Shown: piece by piece, positions 9,070 through 22,371 of the stretch | Layout: the number at the start of each line of letters is the position of its first letter | Position numbering within the stretch: the first letter of the stretch is position 1 | Source: a virus | Strand: one strand, 5' to 3' | DNA: 64,000 nt | IMG/VR virus record: IMGVR_UViG_3300018962_000001 | Coordinates: 140,686-204,685 of that record | Made by a program: the position numbers and the translations under genes | Notes under the pieces: generated by a model | The model's input: the letters and a program-made list of their open reading frames with translations, nothing else | What the model was told of the DNA's origin: nothing | The model's database searches: none

Positions 9070-12000
9070 TTAAATATATCCAGCGGCACGCAGATCGCGC
9101 AAAAAGCCTGCCCAGGCTTCTTCTTGCCGGGCATCAATCATCCGGGCAATTTGATCAAGGGTATAATTGACGCCCTCAATCTGGTAGGTCGGAGCATAGG
9201 TGATGGGCGGCAGGTTCAGCCGGGTCGCCACGGCAGCCAGCGCGGGCGCTGCTGTTTGTGCCCGGAATCGGTCAAAGGTCGCAGCGCCGCCACCAAGCGA
9301 ACGGTCGAGCAATCCATGCTCCAGCTCCTGTGTCAATGCGACTAATTGATCCTCCATCGCCGCCCGCAATCGCGCGAGTCGTTCGCGTAACCGATCGACG
9401 GGAACGACGACCTCCGGCCCAGCCTCGCCCAATAAGTAATTGGTACCAGTATGCGCCCCGATCCCGGTCACCGGCTCCCGAATGACGCCACCTGTGGCAT
9501 ACCCAACCCAGCCACCACCACGCATCACCGACTGGACCCCAGGCAGATCACGAATATGGCCGTACCGGCGTTTAATATAATTAATCGCGGCGATCAGGTT
9601 TTCAATGGGATCATAGATGTCTCCGGGATTGCCAAGATCCCGTCCGTTCGCATAGCCCAGATCTCCGGTATAGGCACGGGCGGATGCCCGTTTGTTGGCA
9701 TTAAAGGTTTGCGGAATCGTTTGAGCCAGGCCGCGCGATGGATACCCCGCGCGAAAATTCGAGTCCCATAGATTGATAGATCGGGGATTCCAGCCTGACT
9801 CATACTTGCCAAGAATGGACAGCCCCTGAAGCCAATCGCGGGTAACCGCAGCCCCTGCCAGTGCCTCGCTGATCCACGATCGCGCTGGCCCCGGTGTGCC
9901 CGGCCAGTACTCGCCACCCCGTGGGTCCGGCGTGTCTTGAGTCACGCCCCGCAGTTCGCGGAGGAAGGCCGCGAGTTCCAGCTTGGGATCAACCCAATTG
10001 CCCCGTTTGTCACTAATCTGATAGTGGAGGTGATCGACCATTTCCCCGTCGCGGTAGGGCGTATGCCCGACGTTGCCGATGTCATAGCCCCGCTCGATCT
10101 GCTGGCCCGCGCGGAAGTTGGCTGGATCAACGAGGTGGGCATAGTAGTGTTCGCGACCCGATTGCCCGCGAATTTGAATATAGTTTCCACCGAATCCGTT
10201 CCAGCCCTGATAGGAAACGACGCCGCTCTCCAGTGCTCGGATGATCGTCCCTTCATCGGCGAGAATGTCGATGCCCTCGTGTCTCCCGGTGGTATCAGGA
10301 CGCGCATCCCCCCACCACGATACGATCTCCCGGCTGCCGACCATAAACTCGGCAGCGTCATAGACATCGGTCCCGACCTGGGCATCCTCAAAGGCACGCA
10401 GTAAGCCTTCGACCAGCGCGAGTGCCCACTCTTTCACTTTGCCGAAGATCGCCGTGCCCACACCAGCAAAGGCATCACCAGCAAAGTCGAACGACTCGAA
10501 TCCCACGGCGCTCAGCCCACGATCCAGCACCCACCCCGCACCTTGACTGATCCAGTTAATGACATCGCCGATCGCGTCGCCAATGCCAAGTTCATAGGCC
10601 GGGTAGTTCCCCGGTAGCAACCCACGCCGCCGCAGGCGCGCGGTCTCCTGATGCGGGAGGACCGTTGAGCCGCGCGGCAACATAACGATTTCCGGTCCCT
10701 TTTCTCCCACAATGGCCGGGCCACCTGGATGGTACCCCCGCCGCGTGCCCCGCGCATATTGGGGAATGGTCGGAAGATTAAAGGTATCGGGAAGCGGCGC
10801 GGCAGCACCGAGCTTCTCGGCAATCCAATTGATCGCGTCGCGGAATTTGTTGACAAAGAACTCAAACCCTTTAATGGCAGCATTAAGTCCCGACGATCCA
10901 TCCGCCGGGCCGATGGCCGTGTTTGCCATCTTTTTCATAATGGTGCCGATCTCGTTAGCAGCTCCCACGAACGGGGCGAGAATGGCCTCCTTGATCTCGC
11001 TGATTCGGTCGCTCATCCCTTTCCAGGCGCGATAGCCTCCATTGAGCACGCCATTGCCCCGGTCATCCCAGGTGCCGACAAAATCACGCATCGCGGTTTT
11101 GCCACCCTCGACGAGATTCGCAAAGAGTCCCAGCACGCCAGGGCCACCAACGGTGTACGTTCCCACCAAATTGTTCCGAATAAGATTCGGAAGATTAACG
11201 ACCAGTTGTGCCACCTGGCCGATTAAGGAGTCGCCGCTGGTATCACTCAGCCCAATCCACTGCTTCACGGTGCGACTGGTATCGTTGATTAACCCCCAGA
11301 ATAGCCCAAGGACGCCGCCGCCGCCGGACGCATAGCGCCCGACCAACTCGCCGATGAGTCGGAAGAATCCATTCGCGAGGCGTTGGATCGTGCCTAACAT
11401 CGATCCGGCAGCAGAATCCGATCCGACCCAGGCAATCAGCGCATCGAGGCCTTCATTGACAAGCCAATACAGCCAGCCCAGTACCCCGTTCTGCCCGGAC
11501 GCATACGTGCCAACCATCCATCTGATCGCAGCGAGATAGTCATCCGCAAGCGTGCGGATCAGACCGAGCATCCCCCCCTGTTGGTAGGCTCCGATCCATC
11601 GCTCAATATTTGTTAGCGCGGTATCCACCAGCGTTGCCAGGAGTCCAAGCAGACCGCCGCCGCCGGGAGTCCACGTGCCGACCATCCAACGGATGGTCTG
11701 AAGCATGGCATCCGCGAGACCCTGGATTTTCGCAAGCCCCCAGTCCCATAAGTTCTGGAACCACCGCACGATCCCGTTGACCATATCGGGAATAATCGAG
11801 TGCCCAACCAGATCCACCCACAGCTGGTAAAAGGCGTTTTTCACCCCTTCCCACAAGCCAACTGCCAGGCCGATCACCGTGGTCACTGCCCCGGTGAAGA
11901 TCGATACTACACTGTCAATAATCCCCTGGACAAAATCGCCAACCGCTTGCCAAAGCGGCTGCCAATCGCCGGTATAGAATCCGTAGATGATTCCCGCAAC

Positions 12001-15000
12001 AATCCGCACCACCCCGGTGATCACCGTCGCGATTAGTTGAATCACGCCAAGGAAGACCTCAATGATTCCGCCAAGCCCGACGATCACGCCCGGCAGCACC
12101 CCGGACAGCAGATTGATGATGAATCCCAGGACATAGAGAAACGTCGTTCCCAGAATCGTGCCCACCGTCACCAATACCGCAGCGATACCTCCTAAGATGG
12201 GCATGAGCGACCGCAGGGTATTGAAAAAGATGGTGACCAGAGGACTCAGCACCTGGAACGCGGTTTGGAGATTCGCCCAGAGGCGTCCGAACGCTAACCC
12301 AACCGCTCCCACGGCACGTTGAAAATCATGAAAGAGCGGTTGCAGGAAGGCGATGAATCGACTCCAGGTCGGCGTGACCGTGGTGTTCCAGTACTGAACA
12401 AACTCGGCGACGCGCCCCTGAATATTGCCCCAGTTCTTCAGCCACGCCACCGTTAACAGCCCGATCACCAGCGCGATCGCGCCAATCGCGAGGGTGACGG
12501 GGTTGATCGCGACCGCTAAGGCTGAGAAGATGGCTGGCCCGGTGCGGAATAGCCCCAGGAGGTTGCTGACAGGATTGGTCAGCATGGTGAGCGGGTTCAA
12601 TGCCCGCCAGATTGCGCTGAACACCGGTCCCAGCCGTGATCCCACGGCTGCCAGGACCGGGAAGCGCGTGCCGAGGGCCGTAAATAGGCCCGTAACCGTG
12701 TTGACAGGGTGGATTAACAGTTGGAATGGATTCAGGATTCCGCGCAGCGCAGGGGCTAGGGGACCAAGGTAGGTTGTCACCCCTTGGATTCCAAGATGAA
12801 TCGCACCGCCAACGCGGAAGACGGCAAAGGCCGTCCCAATCCCCGCGACGACACTGAGAATCGTCCCGCCATTGGTTTGCAAGAAGGCAAAGAAGGGCTG
12901 GATTTCGGCCCGCACCCCTTGCATCGTCGCCCGCAGATTGGCAAACTCATCGGGGAGTTGACCGAGTCCGCCGAACTCGGATTCCCAATCCACCCGTGCT
13001 TCGCCCCCCGCAGGCATCGGAGGCAGCGGGATGTCGGGAGCCGTCATGCCAAAGAGGGCAGTGACAAATTGGACAACCGCATTGCGGGCTAAGTCGATTC
13101 GCTCCTTAGCCGTATCAATCGTGGTGCTGAATGATTGCCATGCTTGTTGGCCTTGGGCCAGGCCAGTCGTGATATTGTCGGTGAGCTGCGTGATCGCCTG
13201 GGTCGCGTCACCAAAGGTCGATTGTTGTCCACGAGCCGCTTGATCGGCTGCTTTTTGCGCCTTTTCCTGAATGTTCAGGATCATCTGCTCAATTTCTGAG
13301 TACTCTTGTGATCCCTCGGCATAGCGACTGCGAAGGCCCATCAACAGCTCAAGGGCTTCGTTATATCGTCCTTGATCCGTCAGGAGGCGCGCTTGGGCCT
13401 TGATCTGCCGCTCATAGGCGTTTTCTGCCTTGATCCCCGAACTTGCGATCGAACGATCCCGCTGGGCTTGCAGACGCTCAATCTGCGCCTCGATGTTGAG
13501 CCACTCTTTCGATCCCTCGGCAAAGTGCGACTGTCGCTCCCGCAGCTTCGCAATCGCTCCATCATAATCGCCGGTTGCCTTTTCCAGATTGGCTTGCGCG
13601 GCGATCTGTTGATCCATCGCCTTCGCAGCCTTGCCGGTTGCCTCCTCCTGCAACCGTGCCCGGCGTTCTTCGAGCACCTGGATCTGGCGCAGCGTGTCAA
13701 AGTACTCCTTGCTCCCCGGCTCCAAGCCCGCCAACTTTTCGCGCAAGATGGCGATCTGCCCGTTGGTGTCCTCCAGTTCCAGGTTGTATTTTTCCTGGGC
13801 GGTTCCCACCTTGGCAGCATCGCGGGCGGCGTCCTCCGCTTGCTGGCGTTGGAGATTGGCGATCTGCTCCATGATGCGGTAGCGCTCTGCCGGATCAGTG
13901 GTTCGTTCAAGCTCCTCGTTAAGCAACGCGATTTTGCCGGGCGTATCCGCAATGGCGAGCTGGTAGTCGAGGAGGGCTTTTCGCTGCCGTTCCTGTTCTT
14001 CCGTCGCTTCACGCCGGGCTTGATTGAGTTCTCGCTCCGCTTCCAGATATTCCAGTGTGCCGGGGGTCAATTCACTTAAGCGTTGCTCTAGGATCGCGGT
14101 CTTTTCCGCCGCCGTCGCCGTTTCGAGGGCATTGCGGCGCTGCGCCTCGGCCAAGGCTTCCGCTTCTTTGCGCGACTTTTCTTCAGCCGCCGCCTGAAGC
14201 TGCGCCAACTGGGTCCGCAGCCGGTATCCTTCTTCAGACTCTTCGCCAACCGCCGCGATCCGGTCGCGCAACATTTGCTGGCGTGTTGCATCATCGGCAA
14301 TCGCGTATTGATAATCCCACTGTGCGTCCGCTAAGCGCTTGAGCCGATCTTCTTCCTTTTTGGTCCCACTTTCGCGTTCATCGGCCAGGCGATGCTCCAG
14401 GTCATAGATCTGCGCGAGAATCTTGTAGTATTCTTCACTTCCATGCTCAACATTCGCAAGTTCACCGCGCAGGATCGCCAGTTTCCCGGCAGTATCGGCA
14501 ATATGGAAGTTGTAGTCGCGCTGGGCTTTCGCGCGGCGGTTGGCTTCCAAGACCGCCTCGCGTTCCCCCGGCGTCATGCCCGGCAGCAGCCCAAGTTTGC
14601 GATCTTCATTGATCTGGCGTTGAATTTGCAGCACCTGCTCCATGAAGCGGAGTTCCCGCTCTTGGAGGCGGTCGGCGGCGGCAAATCCGGCCAAACGGTC
14701 GGCGACCACCTGCTGCTGCTGTTTCAAAATCTCAAGCTGCTGCTGGAGTTGGGTCTTTTGATCGTCTTGGGCCTGTTCCTGGGCCTCCAACATCGCCAGC
14801 TGATCGCGCGCGGCACGTTGTTGCGTAAAGGTGCGTGCGTTGCGCAGGGCACGTTCTGCCGAGCGTGTTGCTTCTTGGAGACGGCGGCGGGCGGCGGGAT
14901 CATCCAAGGCCCGCAGCTTCGCTTGCACCTCATCGATCTGTTGGGTAAGAACGGCCTGATTCAACCGCTCTTGAATACGTAGGAAGATGTCGCGGTTTTG

Positions 15001-16713
15001 TTCGCCGAGGCGCGACTCGATCTGCATCAATGATTCGGCACTGATCCTCCCCGTTTGATTGATGGAGTCGATCGCCTGCGCGACCAGTTGCGTGATCCCC
15101 GGATCTCCATTGGTGCCCACGGAGATGCGAATCGCTTCCTCAGCACTAATTTTGCCCGCCGTAACCAGCGCCGTCAGCCGATCTTGAACCTCCTCGGCGA
15201 TCGTCGTCAGTGCGCCAAAGTCCGAATCGTCCCACTCAAGATAGGCCCGGAGGACCGGACTAAACCACGTGTCAATGGTCGAGAGCGGCCCTTCTCGCGG
15301 CGGCGAGAAACCACGCAAGAACGCTTCGATCCGGCTAGTGATTGCCAGGATTGCCATCTCGACGTAGCTACTGGCTCCTGCTAACATGCCATCGGCGAAG
15401 GCTGCAATGCTGTTCACACCGCCAAGGAACAGTTCACGCGACAGGTTCTGAATCAGGCGAAGAATGAGTCCACTTAATCCCAGCAGGAGATTCGTAATCT
15501 GGGTGGCAGCCGTGCCGAAATCGCCGCTAAACAGGGAGATCAAGGCTCCCCGGAGCGGCGCGAGCGCGGCCAGCACCTGCGCTGCAAACTGGCCGTATCC
15601 TCCCACGACCCGATCCACAAAGGCCAGCGCTGGGGCGGTTGCCTGGCTGAATCCGGTTGCCATTGCCTGAACCGTGCTGATAGCGAGGCGCATGCCTGCG
15701 GCAATGCCCTGCCCCAGCGTGGCGGCGGCGGCGAATAACGCCGGGTCTTTCAGTAAATTTTCGAGGCCAACCAACTGCTCTTTGATGACATCAAAGATTG
15801 GTGCTCCGAACACGCTGCGCAGCATGAACCAGCGGTCAGAAATATTCGACAGAATACCGTCCATCGATCGGGCGGCAAGTTGGGCGGCACCGCCGAACTT
15901 CTCGGCAAGAATCTCGTTGAGGGCGGTGAGCGCCTGATCCGCCGTGCCGAGATACGTTCCCTGCGCATCGAACTTGAGTCCCTTCATCTCAAGATCGGAG
16001 CGAGTCGCAATCGCAAGCTCTCGGAGGCGGCGGAAGGCATCGCCGAAGTCACCCGTTCCAACACGAGCAATCGCGAAGGTGACTTGTTCCAATTGGCTGC
16101 TTAAATCACGGATCGCCGGACGAGTGACGACCGCTGCGTTGGCGACGTTGAGGAGAAATTCTTGCGTGCGCGCGCCAGCAACCTGGAGTTGCCGATCCGC
16201 TTCCACCAGCGCGGGCAGATCAAACGGGGTTTGCACATTAATCGCCTGCAATTCGGCAAGGCGACTTCGGGCGCGCGCGAGCATCTGCGCTGTCGTATCG
16301 CCTTCCTGTCGCAGCAGGGTCATGTAGGAGATGATGCTGTTTTCGAGTTGCTGGTTGGGACCAACCAGCCCGGAGAGTGCTGCCGAGGCAATCCGGCCTA
16401 ACTCACGGAATCCAAAGGTCAACGCGCCCACGCGCGTGATCAGGCCGACCATCCCCCCGCCTAAGACGTTGATCGACGATGACAATCCTGACGAGGTTTG
16501 CTGGGCACGGACGAACGTGTCGCGAAGCACGGAAGCCAGGGTTCGGGCTGACGCGGTAAGTGAACTCATGGATCGCGTGCTCGTCTGCGTGTTGACGTTA
16601 AACCCCTGGAGCTGTGATCCAAGCGCTTGAAGATTTGACCCGATGGCGCGGAGGGCGTTCAGCGCCGACTGGGCATTGCCCGTAAAATTTAAGAGAACCT
16701 GAATTTGATTCAC
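9070..16713 (-). CDS. Tail tape measure protein with M23 peptidase and SLT transglycosylase domains
   Basis: About 2,547 residues; length of this protein sets tail length in siphoviruses. The start is GTG at 16,713 with AAGGAGG seven bases upstream; the frame also reads further upstream without a ribosome site. Residues 1-300 are typical tape-measure helices. About 735-1,150 hold seven 45-residue coiled-coil repeats (pattern KIAILRExL, then PGSxEY, then LxxQIxxLE). Hydrophobic stretches lie near 1,400-1,420 and 1,510-1,585. About 1,680-1,900 is a second repeat (VGTYxSGGxGVLGL). Near 2,144 is an M23 domain with GRHEGID, HYYAHL and HLHYQI, so the zinc ligands look intact. Near 2,304 is a lysozyme-like domain with YESGWNP and RGLAQTIPQTF. 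The two domains would cut peptide and glycan bonds of host peptidoglycan during DNA entry. Confidence 0.93.
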   Translation of the reverse strand: MNQIQVLLNFTGNAQSALNALRAIGSNLQALGSQLQGFNVNTQTSTRSMSSLTASARTLASVLRDTFVRAQQTSSGLSSSINVLGGGMVGLITRVGALTFGFRELGRIASAALSGLVGPNQQLENSIISYMTLLRQEGDTTAQMLARARSRLAELQAINVQTPFDLPALVEADRQLQVAGARTQEFLLNVANAAVVTRPAIRDLSSQLEQVTFAIARVGTGDFGDAFRRLRELAIATRSDLEMKGLKFDAQGTYLGTADQALTALNEILAEKFGGAAQLAARSMDGILSNISDRWFMLRSVFGAPIFDVIKEQLVGLENLLKDPALFAAAATLGQGIAAGMRLAISTVQAMATGFSQATAPALAFVDRVVGGYGQFAAQVLAALAPLRGALISLFSGDFGTAATQITNLLLGLSGLILRLIQNLSRELFLGGVNSIAAFADGMLAGASSYVEMAILAITSRIEAFLRGFSPPREGPLSTIDTWFSPVLRAYLEWDDSDFGALTTIAEEVQDRLTALVTAGKISAEEAIRISVGTNGDPGITQLVAQAIDSINQTGRISAESLMQIESRLGEQNRDIFLRIQERLNQAVLTQQIDEVQAKLRALDDPAARRRLQEATRSAERALRNARTFTQQRAARDQLAMLEAQEQAQDDQKTQLQQQLEILKQQQQVVADRLAGFAAADRLQERELRFMEQVLQIQRQINEDRKLGLLPGMTPGEREAVLEANRRAKAQRDYNFHIADTAGKLAILRGELANVEHGSEEYYKILAQIYDLEHRLADERESGTKKEEDRLKRLADAQWDYQYAIADDATRQQMLRDRIAAVGEESEEGYRLRTQLAQLQAAAEEKSRKEAEALAEAQRRNALETATAAEKTAILEQRLSELTPGTLEYLEAERELNQARREATEEQERQRKALLDYQLAIADTPGKIALLNEELERTTDPAERYRIMEQIANLQRQQAEDAARDAAKVGTAQEKYNLELEDTNGQIAILREKLAGLEPGSKEYFDTLRQIQVLEERRARLQEEATGKAAKAMDQQIAAQANLEKATGDYDGAIAKLRERQSHFAEGSKEWLNIEAQIERLQAQRDRSIASSGIKAENAYERQIKAQARLLTDQGRYNEALELLMGLRSRYAEGSQEYSEIEQMILNIQEKAQKAADQAARGQQSTFGDATQAITQLTDNITTGLAQGQQAWQSFSTTIDTAKERIDLARNAVVQFVTALFGMTAPDIPLPPMPAGGEARVDWESEFGGLGQLPDEFANLRATMQGVRAEIQPFFAFLQTNGGTILSVVAGIGTAFAVFRVGGAIHLGIQGVTTYLGPLAPALRGILNPFQLLIHPVNTVTGLFTALGTRFPVLAAVGSRLGPVFSAIWRALNPLTMLTNPVSNLLGLFRTGPAIFSALAVAINPVTLAIGAIALVIGLLTVAWLKNWGNIQGRVAEFVQYWNTTVTPTWSRFIAFLQPLFHDFQRAVGAVGLAFGRLWANLQTAFQVLSPLVTIFFNTLRSLMPILGGIAAVLVTVGTILGTTFLYVLGFIINLLSGVLPGVIVGLGGIIEVFLGVIQLIATVITGVVRIVAGIIYGFYTGDWQPLWQAVGDFVQGIIDSVVSIFTGAVTTVIGLAVGLWEGVKNAFYQLWVDLVGHSIIPDMVNGIVRWFQNLWDWGLAKIQGLADAMLQTIRWMVGTWTPGGGGLLGLLATLVDTALTNIERWIGAYQQGGMLGLIRTLADDYLAAIRWMVGTYASGQNGVLGWLYWLVNEGLDALIAWVGSDSAAGSMLGTIQRLANGFFRLIGELVGRYASGGGGVLGLFWGLINDTSRTVKQWIGLSDTSGDSLIGQVAQLVVNLPNLIRNNLVGTYTVGGPGVLGLFANLVEGGKTAMRDFVGTWDDRGNGVLNGGYRAWKGMSDRISEIKEAILAPFVGAANEIGTIMKKMANTAIGPADGSSGLNAAIKGFEFFVNKFRDAINWIAEKLGAAAPLPDTFNLPTIPQYARGTRRGYHPGGPAIVGEKGPEIVMLPRGSTVLPHQETARLRRRGLLPGNYPAYELGIGDAIGDVINWISQGAGWVLDRGLSAVGFESFDFAGDAFAGVGTAIFGKVKEWALALVEGLLRAFEDAQVGTDVYDAAEFMVGSREIVSWWGDARPDTTGRHEGIDILADEGTIIRALESGVVSYQGWNGFGGNYIQIRGQSGREHYYAHLVDPANFRAGQQIERGYDIGNVGHTPYRDGEMVDHLHYQISDKRGNWVDPKLELAAFLRELRGVTQDTPDPRGGEYWPGTPGPARSWISEALAGAAVTRDWLQGLSILGKYESGWNPRSINLWDSNFRAGYPSRGLAQTIPQTFNANKRASARAYTGDLGYANGRDLGNPGDIYDPIENLIAAINYIKRRYGHIRDLPGVQSVMRGGGWVGYATGGVIREPVTGIGAHTGTNYLLGEAGPEVVVPVDRLRERLARLRAAMEDQLVALTQELEHGLLDRSLGGGAATFDRFRAQTAAPALAAVATRLNLPPITYAPTYQIEGVNYTLDQIARMIDARQEEAWAGFLRDLRAAGYI

Positions 16714-17029
16714 GGTTGTCCCTCCTTGCCGAAGGGACGAACGTGATCTACAGTGCGGTGAACGCGGCCTGGATCGGCCTGAGACGGCATCGACGGGCAA
16801 GGCACGGTTGGGCTATCCGTGGCTAGGTATGGTTGGGCGTGGCGCAGCACCTCACATGTGTGAGGTGCTGTTTGATTCTTGGGATGCCAACGGTGCCCCA
16901 TCCGAGCCTCGCACGATACGGATCATGTGTCGGATGGGCGAGCACGGGGGAATGGTGGCCCATATAGGAGAAGTCGGGGCAGATGCGCGGACTTCTGCCC
17001 CGTAGTATAGCAAAGACCAGCGGCGTCGT
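16714..17029. other. Intergenic region: tape measure leader, hairpins and a short GGNNN array
   Basis: No gene is credible here. The region holds the putative minus promoter (17,004-17,032), a hairpin near its start point (arms CGGGGCAGA 16,975-16,983 and TCTGCCCCG 16,994-17,002), a 26-nt palindrome (16,845-16,870) and a short run with GG every five bases at about 16,788-16,842. The array resembles the longer ones at 18,620-20,640. Confidence 0.6.
16845..16870. terminator. Perfect 12-bp-arm palindrome
   Basis: Arms CAGCACCTCACA and TGTGAGGTGCTG are separated by two bases and followed on the plus strand by TTTGATTCTT. It may be a terminator for plus-strand transcription or an operator. For the tape measure transcript it lies in the leader, so termination on the minus strand would be attenuation. 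Confidence 0.45.
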
Positions 17030-17231: not shown

Positions 17232-18239
17232 TTAAGGAGCAGTGCGCTCCGCTGCTTCGATGGTGTGAATCCCGGTGAGAAGTTGATAATACGCCAAGCT
17301 TCCAGGCTGAAATAAGAGCAGATAGCCTTGGAGCAACTCTTTCCGCGTGGCACGCGCGGGTTCTAAGGTGATGCGTGCTCGAATCAGCGCCATCCGTTCG
17401 TCATCCGTCAACTGCGGATCGGCCAGCCGATCTTCAAGCAGCAGGATCTTCTGGACGCGCGCAGCGGCAGCGAGGGCCATTGTGGTCGGCGAGATGATCG
17501 AGTCGGAGTCGTCCTCCGGTGGCGTATAAGGCCGGGGGGCAGCTAATCGGGTGGTTGGCCCCGTCGCCGGACGCAGACGTTGATAAATCTCGACCCACGA
17601 CAGGCCCAACCGCCGGAGTGCGAGGATTTCCGCACGCCGGTTCGGCAGATTCTGATAGGCCACCGACTGACGCAGATCCTCCCAGAGCGGCTGAATCTCG
17701 CTGAACCACTGCTGACGGCGGAGAACATCCTGTGGCCCCGGATCAAGCACTCGCACCTCCTCCGGCCAGAAAGCAATCGCCTGATCGATCTGGAGATTAA
17801 TGAGTCCCAGTGGCACGCCCGCAGCATCGCACTCAACACCATCTTGATCGATCCACGGCTTGTGCGGTGATCGCCGGATGAGATGGGGTTTCGTTCCCTG
17901 GATGACCGGGAAGATCGCCGGATCGAGTGGGGGGACAAAGGCCGCATGCGACGTGGGATCATCCACGCGGGCCAGATCTGGGATCGTGTGCCCACACCCG
18001 GAACAAAACTTCGCACCGGGTTCGATTCCACGATACCCACAGCGGGTACACTGATTTGCTGCGCGCGCGCGCTGTAGGCACTGATTTGCGAGCAATGTCC
18101 GGGACCGAAACTCTGCCAGATCAGATCGATAGAGCAGGGTGGTCCGGTAGGCTGCATACAAGGTCGCCATCAGGACTCCTACCTGAACTCCCTCACTCGA
18201 AAGATGGAATAGGAGATCCACGAACCAATCATTCATCAC
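17232..18239 (-). CDS. Zinc-ribbon protein with N-terminal membrane segment
   Basis: 335 residues. An N-terminal hydrophobic stretch (about residues 4-35) is followed by a charged turn. Residues about 63-84 form a zinc ribbon, CTRCGYRGIEPGAKFCSGCG (two CxxC pairs). The rest is helical, including a segment that could bind a partner (RAEILALRRLGLSWVEIYQRL), and a charged helical tail. It starts 3 bp into the end of the regulator gene (ATGA-type overlap), so the two are co-translated. It could be a membrane-tethered regulator or adaptor. No family was identified. Confidence 0.65.
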   Translation of the reverse strand: MMNDWFVDLLFHLSSEGVQVGVLMATLYAAYRTTLLYRSDLAEFRSRTLLANQCLQRARAANQCTRCGYRGIEPGAKFCSGCGHTIPDLARVDDPTSHAAFVPPLDPAIFPVIQGTKPHLIRRSPHKPWIDQDGVECDAAGVPLGLINLQIDQAIAFWPEEVRVLDPGPQDVLRRQQWFSEIQPLWEDLRQSVAYQNLPNRRAEILALRRLGLSWVEIYQRLRPATGPTTRLAAPRPYTPPEDDSDSIISPTTMALAAAARVQKILLLEDRLADPQLTDDERMALIRARITLEPARATRKELLQGYLLLFQPGSLAYYQLLTGIHTIEAAERTAP

Positions 18240-18451
18240 TCCTCCCGTTCCTCCGGCGGCGGCGGCGCGAACAATGCCAGCAACGGCACACCGAGCGCGG
18301 CAGCCATTTTGTCAAGCGATCCGATCGTTAACGTCTCGACGTGGCGATTATGCCAGGCTTTGCGAACCGTCCCCACCCCCAGATCGGCCCGTCGTGCCAG
18401 CTTCGAGATATTTAACGCCTGGGCGGTGGCGATAACAGCTACTTGAAACAT
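18236..18451 (-). CDS. Cro/CI-type helix-turn-helix regulator
   Basis: 71 residues. Helix-turn-helix signature around residues 11-40: ALNISKLARRADLGVGTVRKAW, broken here as ALNISKLARR and ADLGVGTVRKAW. It is followed by LTIGSLDKMAAALGVPLLAL, the usual third and fourth helices of XRE-family repressors, then a Pro/Glu tail. A GGAGG ribosome site precedes the ATG. It lies next to the divergent promoter region (18,490-18,560), with repeated TATA-rich motifs that are natural operator candidates. It may control the plus-strand module or the tail operon. Confidence 0.85.
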   Translation of the reverse strand: MFQVAVIATAQALNISKLARRADLGVGTVRKAWHNRHVETLTIGSLDKMAAALGVPLLALFAPPPPEEREE

Positions 18452-18491: not shown

Positions 18492-18519
18492 TTGACAGAC
18501 CGCATATCTATGTTATACT
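18492..18519 (+). promoter_or_regulatory. Sigma70-type promoter for the plus-strand module
   Basis: TTGACA (18,492-18,497), 16-bp spacer, TATACT (18,514-18,519). It faces the genes at 19,036-20,289 across about 520 bp of array DNA. TATA-rich repeats just downstream (GTATAGTATA, AGTATAGCATA) may bind the adjacent Cro/CI regulator. Confidence 0.65.
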
Positions 18520-18619
18520 GTCATTATAATGTATAGTATATAGAGTATAGCATACAAAACCTATGCTACATTATACTCCCACTCCCGGCAGAATGCTAGA
18601 CATTCGACAGATGAATTCG

Positions 18620-18694
18620 GACATGGTTGGGTGTGGATTGGCTAGGCTAGGAGAGGCACGGTGAGGTCTGGCACGGATGACTCTGCACTGAGTC
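18620..18694 (+). repeat. GGNNN array and hairpin module 1
   Basis: GG recurs every five bases (units such as GGCTA, GGCTA, GGAGA, GGCAC, GGTGA) and ends in GGCACGGATG. A hairpin follows: GACTC (18,679-18,683), loop TGCACT, GAGTC (18,690-18,694). A second small hairpin, ATCCC-TTC-GGGGT, follows at once. Confidence 0.7.
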
Positions 18695-18725
18695 CAATCC
18701 CTTCGGGGTATCTGGGTATGGCATG

Positions 18726-18845
18726 GGAACGGTTGGGTCCGGTAAGGATCGGCTGGGAGCGGCAAGGTGTGGCAAGGTCGGGCTGGGCCGGGCAACGCAG
18801 GGCACGGATGGCGGTGTATTCCGCCACCATTCCCCACCAGGGGAA
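18726..18845 (+). repeat. GGNNN array and twin-hairpin module 2
   Basis: Five-base GG period ending in GGCACGGATG. Hairpin GGCGG-TGTATT-CCGCC (18,810-18,825) is followed by hairpin ATTCCCC-ACCA-GGGGAAT. Confidence 0.7.
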
Positions 18846-18847
18846 TA

Positions 18848-18960
18848 CGAGGATGGCTGGGCGCGGGCATGGCGAGGCGTGGCAAGTCGAGGCTGGGCCG
18901 CGCTAGGTGCGGCAAGGCACGGATGATCGTGGATTCGATCACCATCCCTCACACGAGGGT
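18848..18960 (+). repeat. GGNNN array and twin-hairpin module 3
   Basis: Five-base GG period, partly shifted in phase, ending in GGCACGGATG. Hairpin GATCG-TGGATT-CGATC (18,925-18,940) is followed by CCCTC-ACAC-GAGGG. A further GGNNN array continues to about 19,025. Confidence 0.7.
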
Positions 18961-19035
18961 TATTTGGCTCGGATCGGTCAGGATTGGCTAGGTCAGGTGG
19001 GGCTGGGTGAGGCTTGGTTTGGTACAAGGAGCAGT

Positions 19036-19674
19036 ATGATGGCATCCAACATGATTCAAGCGACGGTTGAGATCCAGGGAACGAAGCCACTGTTGTGGCA
19101 CGCCTTTACGCCCGACAGCATTCCGGCGGACGGCAAGAAGGAAAAGACCGGGGTGGCGGGTAACGATCCCCAGGAATGGCGGCGATCCTTCCTGGCGGAT
19201 CACGAAGGCCGCTTGTTTGTGAACCCGGAATACATCTTCGGCTGCCTGCGCGATGGCGCGCGACACACCAAAAAAGGCCGTGGATCGATTATGTCGAATG
19301 TGGCGGCAACGCTTCAGATCGTGGACGAGCGGATCTACACCGATCGCTATTTCCCACGCAACGGCGCGACTGGCCCCTTTGATCCGGCATCGGCGGATCG
19401 CCCGCCGATCGAGATCACCGAGCCGGTTTATCTCGACGTGCGATCGGTGAAGAACCCGTCCACGAAAGGTCGGAACGTCCGCTACCGGGTGGCGGCGAGT
19501 CCAGGGTGGCGGGCGAGCTTTACGATTCTGTGGGACAAAACCATTGTCAGCCGCACCGAGATGGAGGCGGTCATTACTGATGCGGGCCGACTCGTCGGGC
19601 TGGGTGATGGCCGATCGATCGGCTTTGGTCGATTCATGGTGGTGCCAGGGTCCATCACGTTTACCGAGGTCTAG
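19036..19674 (+). CDS. RAMP-like (ferredoxin-fold) phage protein
   Basis: 212 residues; AAGGAGCAGT precedes a double ATG (19,036 or 19,039). It starts with a beta strand (QATVEIQGTKPLLWHAF), has LFVNPEYIFGCLRDGARHTKKGRGS in the middle (shown in part), and ends with a Gly-rich segment, GLGDGRSIGFGRFMV. A first beta strand followed by a late Gly-rich loop and final strand is the general layout of RAMP/Cas7-like ferredoxin folds, and similar proteins of unknown function occur in phages. RNA or DNA binding is inferred only. It is the first gene of a three-gene plus-strand module lying antisense inside the tail operon. Confidence 0.6.
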   Translation: MMASNMIQATVEIQGTKPLLWHAFTPDSIPADGKKEKTGVAGNDPQEWRRSFLADHEGRLFVNPEYIFGCLRDGARHTKKGRGSIMSNVAATLQIVDERIYTDRYFPRNGATGPFDPASADRPPIEITEPVYLDVRSVKNPSTKGRNVRYRVAASPGWRASFTILWDKTIVSRTEMEAVITDAGRLVGLGDGRSIGFGRFMVVPGSITFTEV

Positions 19675-19749
19675 AGTCTTTCGAGGCGAGGCATGGTGAG
19701 GTGAGGTATGGGGTGGTTGGCGAGGTACGGCCTGGCAAGGAGTTTGAAC
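19675..19749 (+). repeat. Short GGNNN array between module genes
   Basis: The 70-bp gap carries the same five-base GG rhythm (GGCGA, GGCAT, GGTGA, GGTGA, GGTAT) and ends in the AAGGAG ribosome site of the HNH gene. Confidence 0.6.
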
Positions 19750-20067
19750 ATGGGCATGAAACGACAACCTCCGAAGATCTGGGAAGGAACCCGCAAACGA
19801 ATATTCGAACGCGATCGGGGGATCTGCCAATCTCCCCTGGCTCCACCCCTGTGTCAAGGGAAACGCGGCGAGTTAACGCTTGCCACGGCGCATATCGACC
19901 ACCGGCGAAGCGGTCGGTTTGGCACGAATGCGGATAGCAACCTCCGGGTGCTCTGCCGCGCGTGCCACGTCCTCCGCGACGATCCGCGCCACCGAGGCAT
20001 GATCGGCGGAGCCTTGCGCGACGGGATCATCCCTCCCCATTGGCGGGAGCTAACCTGGGGAGAGTAG
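19750..20067 (+). CDS. HNH endonuclease
   Basis: 105 residues from the ATG at 19,750, with AAGGAG eight bases upstream. It has RKRIFERDRGICQ, then HIDHRRSGRFGTNADSNLRV, then CRACH: the order of an HNH motif, in which the first His coordinates metal, the Asn orients the loop and CRACH closes the ββα-metal core. One Cys pair is atypical (ICQ...LCQ in place of CxxC). It could cut or nick DNA in packaging, mobility or host takeover. It stands alone as a free-standing HNH in the array module, where homing nucleases often sit. Confidence 0.82.
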   Translation: MGMKRQPPKIWEGTRKRIFERDRGICQSPLAPPLCQGKRGELTLATAHIDHRRSGRFGTNADSNLRVLCRACHVLRDDPRHRGMIGGALRDGIIPPHWRELTWGE

Positions 20068-20289
20068 ATGGGTCGTCCAAGGCACAGAACGGGTGCCGTG
20101 CGCCAGCTGCCGTGGCGCAGAGTCGTCACGGCAGCACGTGATGGCGGAATCATGGGGGCGGTGCTGGGAGGGGTGTTCTTTGGCCCTTCTGGCGCGCTGG
20201 TGACCAGCTTAGTAGGAGCGGTGGCAGCGGCGGCGGTTCGCTGGTATCGAAGCGTCAAGGCGAGAGGTCGCATGGGAAGGCATGGATGA
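20068..20289 (+). CDS. Small membrane protein with glycine-zipper segment
   Basis: 73 residues starting one base after the HNH stop. Basic N-terminus (GRPRHRTGAVRQLPWRR), then a Gly/Ala-rich hydrophobic stretch (GGIMGAVLGGVFFGPSGALV and onward to AAVRW) that resembles glycine-zipper membrane segments, then a basic tail that runs into the next GGNNN array. It could be holin-like or a membrane anchor. Evidence is only hydrophobicity and spacing. Confidence 0.5.
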   Translation: MGRPRHRTGAVRQLPWRRVVTAARDGGIMGAVLGGVFFGPSGALVTSLVGAVAAAAVRWYRSVKARGRMGRHG

Positions 20290-20302
20290 TCGTGGATCGA
20301 TC
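20255..20302 (+). repeat. GGNNN and hairpin module 4
   Basis: A short GG-periodic lead ending in GGCATGGATG. Hairpin GATCG-TGGAT-CGATC at 20,288-20,302, with a five-base loop instead of six. It overlaps the end of the small membrane protein gene. Confidence 0.55.
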
Positions 20303-20311
20303 CCACTTCTC

Positions 20312-20481
20312 GGTTGGGCAAGCGAGGGTCTGGCAAGGACAGGCAAGGCTTGGCTCGGCAGGGTCGGGTTCGGCTGGGCAAGGATACTGGTGTTTCCAGT
20401 ACCATCGATTGGGTGTGGCGGGGCGGTGGTAGGGTGGGGCTTGGCTTGGTCCGGCACGGCAGGGATGATGGTGTCTCCATT
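20312..20481 (+). repeat. GGNNN array and hairpin module 5
   Basis: Long run of GG every five bases (GGCAA, GGCTT, GGCTC, GGCAG, GGTCG, GGTTC, GGCTG), interrupted by CCAGTACCATCGATTGG. Hairpin ATGG-TGTCT-CCAT lies at 20,468-20,480. Confidence 0.6.
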
Positions 20482-20493
20482 CCACCTCATGGT

Positions 20494-20640
20494 CGGGCGA
20501 GGAGGGGCGAGGCAGGGCTAGGCGGGGCAAGGTGAGGCCCGGCAAGGTTCGGCACCGATCCTCGTGTCATCGAGGCCACCACGGGGTATGCCGAGGCGTG
20601 GTAAGGTGAGGCTAGGCTGCGGTGAGGTCCGGCGAGACGG
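20494..20640 (+). repeat. GGNNN array and hairpin module 6
   Basis: GG-periodic run, hairpin CCTCG-TGTCAT-CGAGG (20,560-20,575), then a further GG-periodic tail to about 20,640. With modules 4 and 5 it fills the 370 bp between the plus-strand module and the converging tail operon. Confidence 0.6.
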
Positions 20641-20642
20641 GG

Positions 20643-20673
20643 AACAGGACGGGTGCTGGTCACCCGTCCTGTT
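20643..20673. terminator. Bidirectional terminator-type hairpin
   Basis: Perfect 13-bp stem: AACAGGACGGGTG (20,643-20,655), loop of five, CACCCGTCCTGTT (20,661-20,673). It overlaps the stop codon of the minus-strand gene and lies where the plus and minus transcripts meet. No U-tract follows on either strand. Confidence 0.5.
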
Positions 20674-21705: not shown

Positions 21706-22371
21706 TTAGGTAAGCTCAAACAAGAGTCCGAAGTCCGAGCCGTCCGTGACGCCGGGATCGGGCAGGATGTTAAAGCTAAACTCGTTCGTGGTCGTGCCAC
21801 GCGATTGAATTTGGAAGTCTCCGGCGGAGGCGATCCGCGCTTTCCGCAAGAAGAACATGCGAATCTTGCCGGTCACATCATTTTGCTGGAGCACCACCAG
21901 CGGGCGCTCGATCAAGGCAGATGGCGCACCAAGCCCTACCCGTCGCTGCGCAGCGTTGGCGGGCGTCCCGCTCGGGTTTGCGGAAATCGCGGTGATCGCG
22001 CCGAGTGCCCACAACCATTTCATACGGTCGAGACTGGTATCCATACTGGTCCCGCCGAGCGTCATGGCAAAGTTATTCGGACGACCGCCGCGCAGCGGAT
22101 AATCGCGTTGATCGATATTGATGCCGTCTTGTATATCAAAGCTGCGACCGAGCGTAATTCCATCCTCACTGGTCGCCCCGAAGTCATGATAGCCATCTTC
22201 CAGGGCGTAGCTCGTCAGATTCAGGATGTCCTCAATGTAGCGCGGCACCGCCTGAGTCGGCACCGGCGTTTCCGGCGCGACCGCGGCATAAACGAGGCGT
22301 GCCCCGCCTTGCCAGATGCGCGCATCTGCGCTGGCATCAATACTAATGGCACTAACCAGTTGCGTTGCCAT
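21706..22371 (-). CDS. Major tail tube protein
   Basis: 221 residues, beginning MATQLVSAISIDASADARIWQGG. It contains QAVPRYIEDILNLTSYALE and NFAMTLGGTSMDTSLDRMKWL, and the beta-rich end is GTTTNEFSFNILPDPGVTDG. This spacing of a strand-loop N-terminus, a helix and a beta sandwich fits tail tube subunits. Position (after the neck genes, before the chaperones) supports the call; the sequence alone would not settle it. It would form the tail tube ring. Confidence 0.75.
   Translation of the reverse strand: MATQLVSAISIDASADARIWQGGARLVYAAVAPETPVPTQAVPRYIEDILNLTSYALEDGYHDFGATSEDGITLGRSFDIQDGINIDQRDYPLRGGRPNNFAMTLGGTSMDTSLDRMKWLWALGAITAISANPSGTPANAAQRRVGLGAPSALIERPLVVLQQNDVTGKIRMFFLRKARIASAGDFQIQSRGTTTNEFSFNILPDPGVTDGSDFGLLFELT

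What the first reader, a model, noticed from the sequence alone, without database searches (positions are those of the whole stretch)
18620..20640. GGNNN-periodic arrays capped by hairpins whose stems co-vary
Six modules share a run with GG every five bases, a GGCACGGATG-like end and then a short hairpin. Stems differ but stay paired: GACTC/GAGTC, GGCGG/CCGCC, GATCG/CGATC (twice), ATGG/CCAT and CCTCG/CGAGG. The loops all begin TG and end T (TGCACT, TGTATT, TGGATT, TGGAT, TGTCT, TGTCAT). Modules 1-3 add a second small hairpin (for example ATTCCCC-ACCA-GGGGAAT). Co-variation of paired bases points to selection for structure rather than sequence. The (GGNNN)n runs could form two-layer G-quadruplex strings on the plus strand, and their complement is a C-rich, G-poor transcript of the kind Rho uses. 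The arrays lie between genes and also appear near 16,790.
Basis: partly seen in the sequence, partly recalled or inferred. Interest (0 to 1): 0.82.

Follow-up and report, generated by a model that had tools for sequence, protein, structure and literature searches.

The report
Phage RNA-guided VIPR locus, HNH nuclease
The GG-every-five-bases runs in this large phage are guide RNAs of a newly described RNA-guided system, VIPR, a relative of the CRISPR ancestor that phages use against rival phages; here it comes with a Cas7-like Vipr protein and a conserved HNH nuclease gene.

Summary
In the 204,685-base phage record, period-5 GG arrays occur only at window 16766-16845 and 18625-20619, far above shuffled controls. 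The arrays flank a gene at 19036-19674. I fetched 120 IMG/VR stretches by array pattern alone: 81 of the 110 with usable arrays encode a homolog of that gene, on the same strand in 80 of 81 and at a median of about 12 bp. Control loci: 0 of 43. The family matches the solved Vipr protein of phage SUSP1 (E=1.3e-42), and its predicted fold matches Cas7/Csm3 RAMPs. The window is therefore a VIPR system (PMC13142463): arrays are vrRNA guides (GGY/NN code), and the hairpins are their 3' tails. I found a seventh hairpin; all 35 stem pairs hold. A neighbouring HNH nuclease gene is conserved in 11 of 13 members of this Vipr clade and in none of 80 other Vipr loci, so it is the likely accessory gene. 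Some clade members use GTY or GAY instead of GGY, which argues against G-quadruplexes. No target was found. It is a new member of a known, very recent kind.

The parts
18236..18451 (-). divergent Cro/C1-type HTH gene (71 aa), likely regulator of the VIPR operon
   Evidence: Pfam HTH_26 1.6e-5, above cut-off; divergent HTH genes also precede vipr in L189 and L190
18492..18519 (+). sigma-70-type promoter TTGACA-16-TATACT with extended -10, reading into the arrays
   Evidence: 11 of 12 consensus positions
18548..18568 (.). perfect 7-bp inverted repeat TAGCATA-N7-TATGCTA downstream of the promoter, possible operator (inferred)
   Evidence: read directly from the sequence
18625..18712 (+). vrRNA V1: 9 GGYNN guide repeats, then GGCACGGATG and tail hairpin GACTC-TGCACT-GAGTC plus CCC-TTC-GGGG
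18726..18846 (+). vrRNA V2: 15 repeats, tail hairpin GGCGG-TGTATT-CCGCC plus TTCCCC-ACCA-GGGGAA
18851..18961 (+). vrRNA V3: 13 repeats (4 without GG, partly decayed), tail hairpin GATCG-TGGATT-CGATC plus CCCTC-ACAC-GAGGG
18966..19025 (+). array V4: 12 repeats, no tail, runs into the Shine-Dalgarno site of vipr
19036..19674 (+). vipr gene, 212 aa, Cas7/RAMP-like RNA-binding protein with C-terminal Gly-rich loop
   Evidence: PDB 36pp_D SUSP1 Vipr: profile E=1.3e-42, single sequence 8.4e-6; predicted fold matches Csm3
19685..19743 (+). array V5: about 11 repeats with a phase slip, no tail, ends in the Shine-Dalgarno site of the HNH gene
19750..20067 (+). HNH endonuclease gene (105 aa), candidate vap (vipr accessory gene)
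   Evidence: Pfam HNH at cut-off; orthologs 53-56% identical, HNH residues kept; next to vipr in 11 of 13 clade members, 0 of 80 others
20068..20289 (+). 73-aa ORF, weak glycine-zipper likeness, function unknown; its 3' end overlaps tail V6
20279..20312 (+). tail V6: GATCG-TGGAT-CGATC hairpin with only a remnant of repeats before it
20412..20488 (+). vrRNA V8: about 8 repeats with one phase slip, tail hairpin GATGG-TGTCT-CCATT
20491..20588 (+). vrRNA V9: 12 repeats, tail hairpin CCTCG-TGTCAT-CGAGG
20595..20640 (+). array V10: short, partly decayed, in front of the terminator-like hairpin
20643..20673 (.). 13-bp inverted repeat AACAGGACGGGTG-CTGGT-CACCCGTCCTGTT, likely end of the operon (inferred)
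   Evidence: read directly from the sequence
16766..16871 (+). array V0: isolated partly decayed array followed by a terminator-like hairpin (16844-16871)

Best explanation
This is a VIPR (Viral Interference Programmable Repeat) operon carried by a large phage. Shown here: a Vipr protein gene (Cas7-like RAMP), about ten GGYNN arrays around it, seven tail hairpins, a conserved HNH gene, a promoter and a divergent HTH gene. Inferred from the published system: each array plus tail is transcribed as a vrRNA. Vipr subunits coat it, presumably one per five-base repeat, holding GGY and exposing NN. The NN pairs then read double-stranded DNA with one base skipped between pairs, so the complex binds and silences (and here, with the HNH partner, may nick or cut) DNA of competing phages or satellites. 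The tail hairpin marks or protects the 3' end of each guide.
For: Arrays chosen by pattern alone lie beside a homolog of the window gene in 81 of 110 usable loci, same strand in 80 of 81; 0 of 43 control loci. Profile match to solved SUSP1 Vipr, E=1.3e-42. Predicted fold (pLDDT 80.5) matches Csm3/Cas7, E about 1e-7, probability 1.0. G-loop residues G184, G188, G198 and W158 are invariant in 43 homologs. GGY/NN statistics and tail structure as published (PMC13142463). HNH gene is clade-specific and conserved.
Against: No target was found for five guides in IMG/VR (V1, V2, V3, V7, V9), nor for any array in the phage itself or the loci held, so guide function of these particular arrays is not shown. 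Some arrays are decayed or lack a tail (V0, V3, V4, V5, V10). The tail sequence was not seen in the relatives inspected. Transcription and protein binding cannot be tested here.
Confidence: 0.93

Rival explanations
1. The arrays are DNA or RNA structural elements in their own right: strings of two-layer G-quadruplexes, or on the other strand C-rich Rho-utilisation sites, with the hairpins as pause or stop signals.
For: GG every five bases fits the two-layer quadruplex pattern; strong positive GC skew at the arrays.
Against: Array strand equals vipr sense strand in 80 of 81 loci, so the transcript is not C-rich. Clade members use GTYNN or GAYNN in place of GGYNN with the same period. Near-constant adjacency to one protein family is not expected for such elements.
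Confidence: 0.03
2. It is a VIPR locus, but a decaying one: the phage keeps vipr while several guides have rotted and the system no longer works.
For: V3 has 4 of 15 units without GG; V6 is a tail with almost no repeats; V0 and V10 are short or broken.
Against: Vipr and HNH frames are open with conserved residues kept. V1, V2, V7 and V9 are nearly perfect, and seven stems all pair. Strong promoter.
Confidence: 0.12
3. The HNH gene is a selfish homing-type endonuclease that happens to sit in the locus, not a VIPR accessory protein.
For: HNH genes are common in phages, and homing enzymes often sit between genes.
Against: Same position just downstream of vipr in 11 of 13 clade members across IMG/VR contigs (one of them also binned in a Parcubacteria MAG), Microcoleus, and Nostoc and Paenibacillus plasmids, and in none of 80 other Vipr loci. 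Conserved C-terminal extension RHxGMIxxALRDGIIPxxWRxL in the four aligned members, outside the HNH core.
Confidence: 0.15

Closest known systems
VIPR of Escherichia phage SUSP1 (type II; PMC13142463; PDB 36pp)
   Same: Vipr RAMP homolog; GGY/NN arrays upstream and downstream of the genes; structured 3' tail; phage-borne; small operon with an accessory gene
   Different: Window Vipr is distant in sequence (single-sequence E=8e-6); accessory gene is an HNH nuclease, where type II encodes a predicted DNA-binding protein; tail is one or two hairpins whose stem sequence varies by paired changes, not an invariable sequence with a pseudoknot; about ten arrays instead of four
VIPR types III-V (nuclease or helicase vap genes, PMC13142463)
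   Same: An enzyme gene of predicted nuclease type beside vipr
   Different: Type could not be assigned because the paper's supplement is not readable here; types III and V are reported as enriched in host defence islands, whereas this locus lies inside the tail-gene region of a large phage
Type III CRISPR-Cas Csm3/Cas7 backbone proteins
   Same: RAMP fold with Gly-rich loop
   Different: No CRISPR repeats and no other cas genes seen around it; 5-base instead of 6-base period in the guide

Membership tests
VIPR | Vipr protein: minimal RAMP with RRM core and Gly-rich loop | tested here: met
   PDB 36pp_D SUSP1 Vipr E=1.3e-42 with profile; AlphaFold model matches Csm3/Cas7 RAMPs; G-loop glycines invariant
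VIPR | Tandem repeats of conserved GGY alternating with hypervariable NN | tested here: met
   84 of 90 units GG, position 3 pyrimidine in 73 of 84, positions 4-5 entropy 1.95/1.93 bits
VIPR | 9-16 repeats per vrRNA, several vrRNAs flanking vipr | tested here: met
   V1 9, V2 15, V3 13, V4 12, V7 13, V9 12 guide repeats, around 19036-19674; V8 about 8 and V10 shorter
VIPR | Structured 3' tail after the repeats | tested here: met
   Seven tails, 35 of 35 stem cells pair; stems differ in sequence, unlike the invariable tail described
VIPR | Pseudoknot in the tail (SUSP1 clade only) | tested here: inconclusive
   Only ordinary hairpins were predicted; no pseudoknot prediction was run
VIPR | vipr accessory (vap) gene | tested here: met
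   HNH gene in 11 of 13 clade members, 0 of 80 others; that it acts with Vipr is inferred
VIPR | Carried mainly by phages and proviruses | tested here: met
   IMG/VR virus record with tail genes
VIPR | Target recognition by NN with one skipped base | tested here: inconclusive
   Guide cores of V1, V2, V3, V7 and V9 scanned over IMG/VR gave chance-level matches only
VIPR | vrRNA expressed and bound by Vipr | not testable with these tools
   needs RNA sequencing and pull-down
VIPR types I-VII | Assignment to a named type | not testable with these tools
   type definitions are in the supplement of PMC13142463, not readable here
CRISPR-Cas | CRISPR array with identical repeats and unique spacers, other cas genes | tested here: not met
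   repeat families are degenerate period-5 only; neighbouring proteins are HNH, HTH, a zinc-ribbon protein and tail proteins
Known Rfam RNA families | match at gathering score | tested here: not met
   no match in the window

The most novel reading that the evidence does not exclude
A nuclease-armed VIPR clade carried by phages and plasmids: HNH works as a guide-directed DNA cutting or nicking partner of Vipr. Within this clade the protein-bound scaffold letter has drifted (GGY, GTY, GAY) together with the Vipr protein, giving several mutually exclusive guide codes; and arrays lying in the ribosome-binding sites of vipr and HNH let spare Vipr shut off its own operon.
Probability: 0.3. Interest if true: 0.78.

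Novelty: new member of a known kind. Interest (0 to 1): 0.6.

Why it matters
VIPR was reported only in April 2026 (bioRxiv, PMC13142463) and is argued to be the ancestor of CRISPR. This locus was found from raw sequence by its guide code alone. It adds a large uncultivated phage with about ten arrays, and a 13-member Vipr clade in which 11 carry an HNH nuclease gene. That makes it testable whether phage VIPRs cut DNA and do not only silence it. The GTY and GAY arrays show that the fixed scaffold letters can change while period and pyrimidine stay, which is a natural handle on how Vipr reads its RNA. The array-then-protein search is also a quick way to find more such systems.

Tried and rejected
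Rfam at gathering threshold on the window: nothing; on six relatives at E<=1: one tRNA and sub-threshold matches, taken as chance. blastn of the locus and tblastn of Vipr and of the presumed capsid protein against 50,697 phage records: no match. Self-targeting or targets in 1.3 Mb of held sequence under skips of 0-2 bases: no better than shuffled guides. Target cores of V1, V2, V3, V7 and V9 with one skipped base in IMG/VR: 6-29 stretches each, extensions at chance level. The best, V2 with 25 of 30 letters in five stretches (L139, L147, L154, L155, L162), is not convincing after allowing for 29 stretches tested. V1 core hit L228 comes from the same sample as the relative L132 but does not extend. 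Guide of Microcoleus L135 in 36 genomes of its order: no match. RNA folding of whole modules is not more stable than shuffles except V3, as expected if the repeat part is meant to be open. Coordinates of the first translations were off by one base and corrected.

Full report
Observation. The window is the last 64 kb of a 204,685-base virus record. A scan for GG at every fifth base over the record found strong runs only at 16766-16845 and 18625-20619, all on the plus strand, with scores up to 18; five shuffled copies of the whole record gave only four runs in the 5-6 bin and none higher. Position 3 of the unit is a pyrimidine in 73 of 84 GG units, and positions 4 and 5 are nearly random. All 35 stem cells pair, 34 by Watson-Crick pairs, while arms mixed between modules pair in 58% of cells.

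Linking arrays to a protein. I searched IMG/VR for (GGNNN)x11-GG and nothing else (120 stretches, L012-L131). In the first 80 loci, an iterated profile search started from the window gene at 19036-19674 found a homolog in 56. In all of these the nearest array lay on the gene's strand, at a median of 12 bp. The last 40 loci, not used to build the profile, gave 25 more (24 on the array strand, median 14 bp). Forty-three viral loci fetched by unrelated patterns gave none and had no strong arrays. Ten of the 120 loci are low-complexity matches without a usable array, so the rate is 81 of 110. The arrays and this gene therefore form one system.

What the protein is. Pfam has no model for it, and PHROGs calls it phrog_4652, unknown function. 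A profile of 43 members matches PDB 36pp chain D, 'SUSP1 Vipr protein', with E=1.3e-42; the window protein alone gives 8.4e-6. The AlphaFold model (mean pLDDT 80.5) matches Csm3/Cas7 subunits of type III CRISPR complexes with E about 1e-7 and probability 1.0. The full text of PMC13142463 describes VIPR: Vipr, an ancestral RAMP, with vrRNAs of 9-16 GGY/NN repeats and a structured 3' tail. The NN pairs recognise double-stranded DNA with one skipped base, mostly against competing phages and satellites. The protein, repeat and tail features tested here fit; the target rule could not be confirmed.

Anatomy of the window locus. A strong promoter (18492-18519) lies between a divergent Cro/C1-type HTH gene (18236-18451) and the arrays. 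In order there follow V1, V2, V3, V4, vipr, V5, an HNH gene, a 73-aa ORF, V6 (tail only), V7, V8, V9, V10 and a 13-bp hairpin at 20643-20673. V0 lies apart at 16766-16845. The island is on the plus strand, while the neighbouring tail genes (including the tape-measure gene at 9070-16800 and a major tail protein at 21706-22371) are on the minus strand. Divergent HTH genes also precede vipr in the Nostoc and Paenibacillus plasmids.

The HNH gene. Close relatives of the window Vipr (most 44-64% identical over the aligned part) were found in IMG/VR, Microcoleus, a Parcubacteria bin, and Nostoc and Paenibacillus plasmids. A tree puts 13 Viprs, the window's included, in one clade with 99% SH-aLRT support. 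Eleven of the 13 carry the same HNH gene directly after vipr or after one or more arrays; none of the 80 other Vipr loci do within 2.5 kb. The HNH core and a C-terminal extension are conserved in the four members aligned. I read it as the accessory (vap) gene of this clade. The paper says that types III-V encode predicted nucleases or helicases; without its supplement I cannot say which type this is.

Variation of the code. In L190 (Nostoc) the units are GTYNN, in L186 GAYNN, and in L188 and L183 mixtures. Under GNYNN none of 300 shuffles reaches any of them. The paper mentions 'a related consensus' in some types, so this may be known, but it argues against the quadruplex reading for this clade. 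L189 (Paenibacillus) has a single array between two sequences that I read by eye as hammerhead-like (GAAAC and CTGANGA cores); Rfam did not confirm them.

Arrays in ribosome-binding sites. V4 and V5 have no tail and end in the Shine-Dalgarno site of vipr and of HNH. The same layout precedes HNH in L132, L180, L181 and L185. An array ends within 25 bases of a start codon in 31 of 93 Vipr loci. No null rate was computed for this. It could allow autoregulation by free Vipr; this is inference only.

Targets. None was found. This is not evidence against the system, because the proteins tested have no match in the phage collection and the host is unknown.

Verdict. The finding is real. The quadruplex and Rho reading is not supported; the structured-RNA part is. 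It is a new member of VIPR, a kind first described in 2026, belonging to an HNH-bearing clade.

Noticed in passing
L190:4617-4720, L186:4159-4245, L188:3797-3985, L183:4891-4930: Vipr-linked period-5 arrays in which GGY is replaced by GTY or GAY or a mixture, in step along the whole array.
   Followed up: partly
L189:4880-5130 (Paenibacillus cellulosilyticus plasmid): A single vrRNA-like array flanked on both sides by hammerhead-like sequences (GAAAC and CTGANGA cores, stem II on the outside); Rfam did not report them.
   Followed up: no
L136:6013-6348 (Chlamydiae MAG): A truncated vipr remnant (first 111 residues) without arrays or HNH gene.
   Followed up: no
L020, L059, L070 arrays: Arrays divided into units of about 45-75 bases by a one-base shortened repeat (GGCA then GGC) without hairpins, probably the staggered or tail-less vrRNA arrays of another VIPR type.
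   Followed up: no
window 9070-16800 minus strand: Tape-measure protein of about 2,550 residues that by eye holds a peptidase M23-like stretch (HEGIDILADEGTIIRALESGVV...HLHYQIS); the VIPR island interrupts the minus-strand tail genes just before it.
   Followed up: no
window 17232-18239 minus strand: 335-aa zinc-ribbon protein with no clear family, between the tape-measure gene and the HTH gene.
   Followed up: no
window 20068-20289: 73-aa glycine-zipper-like ORF that follows the HNH gene and overlaps a vrRNA tail; not sought in the relatives.
   Followed up: no
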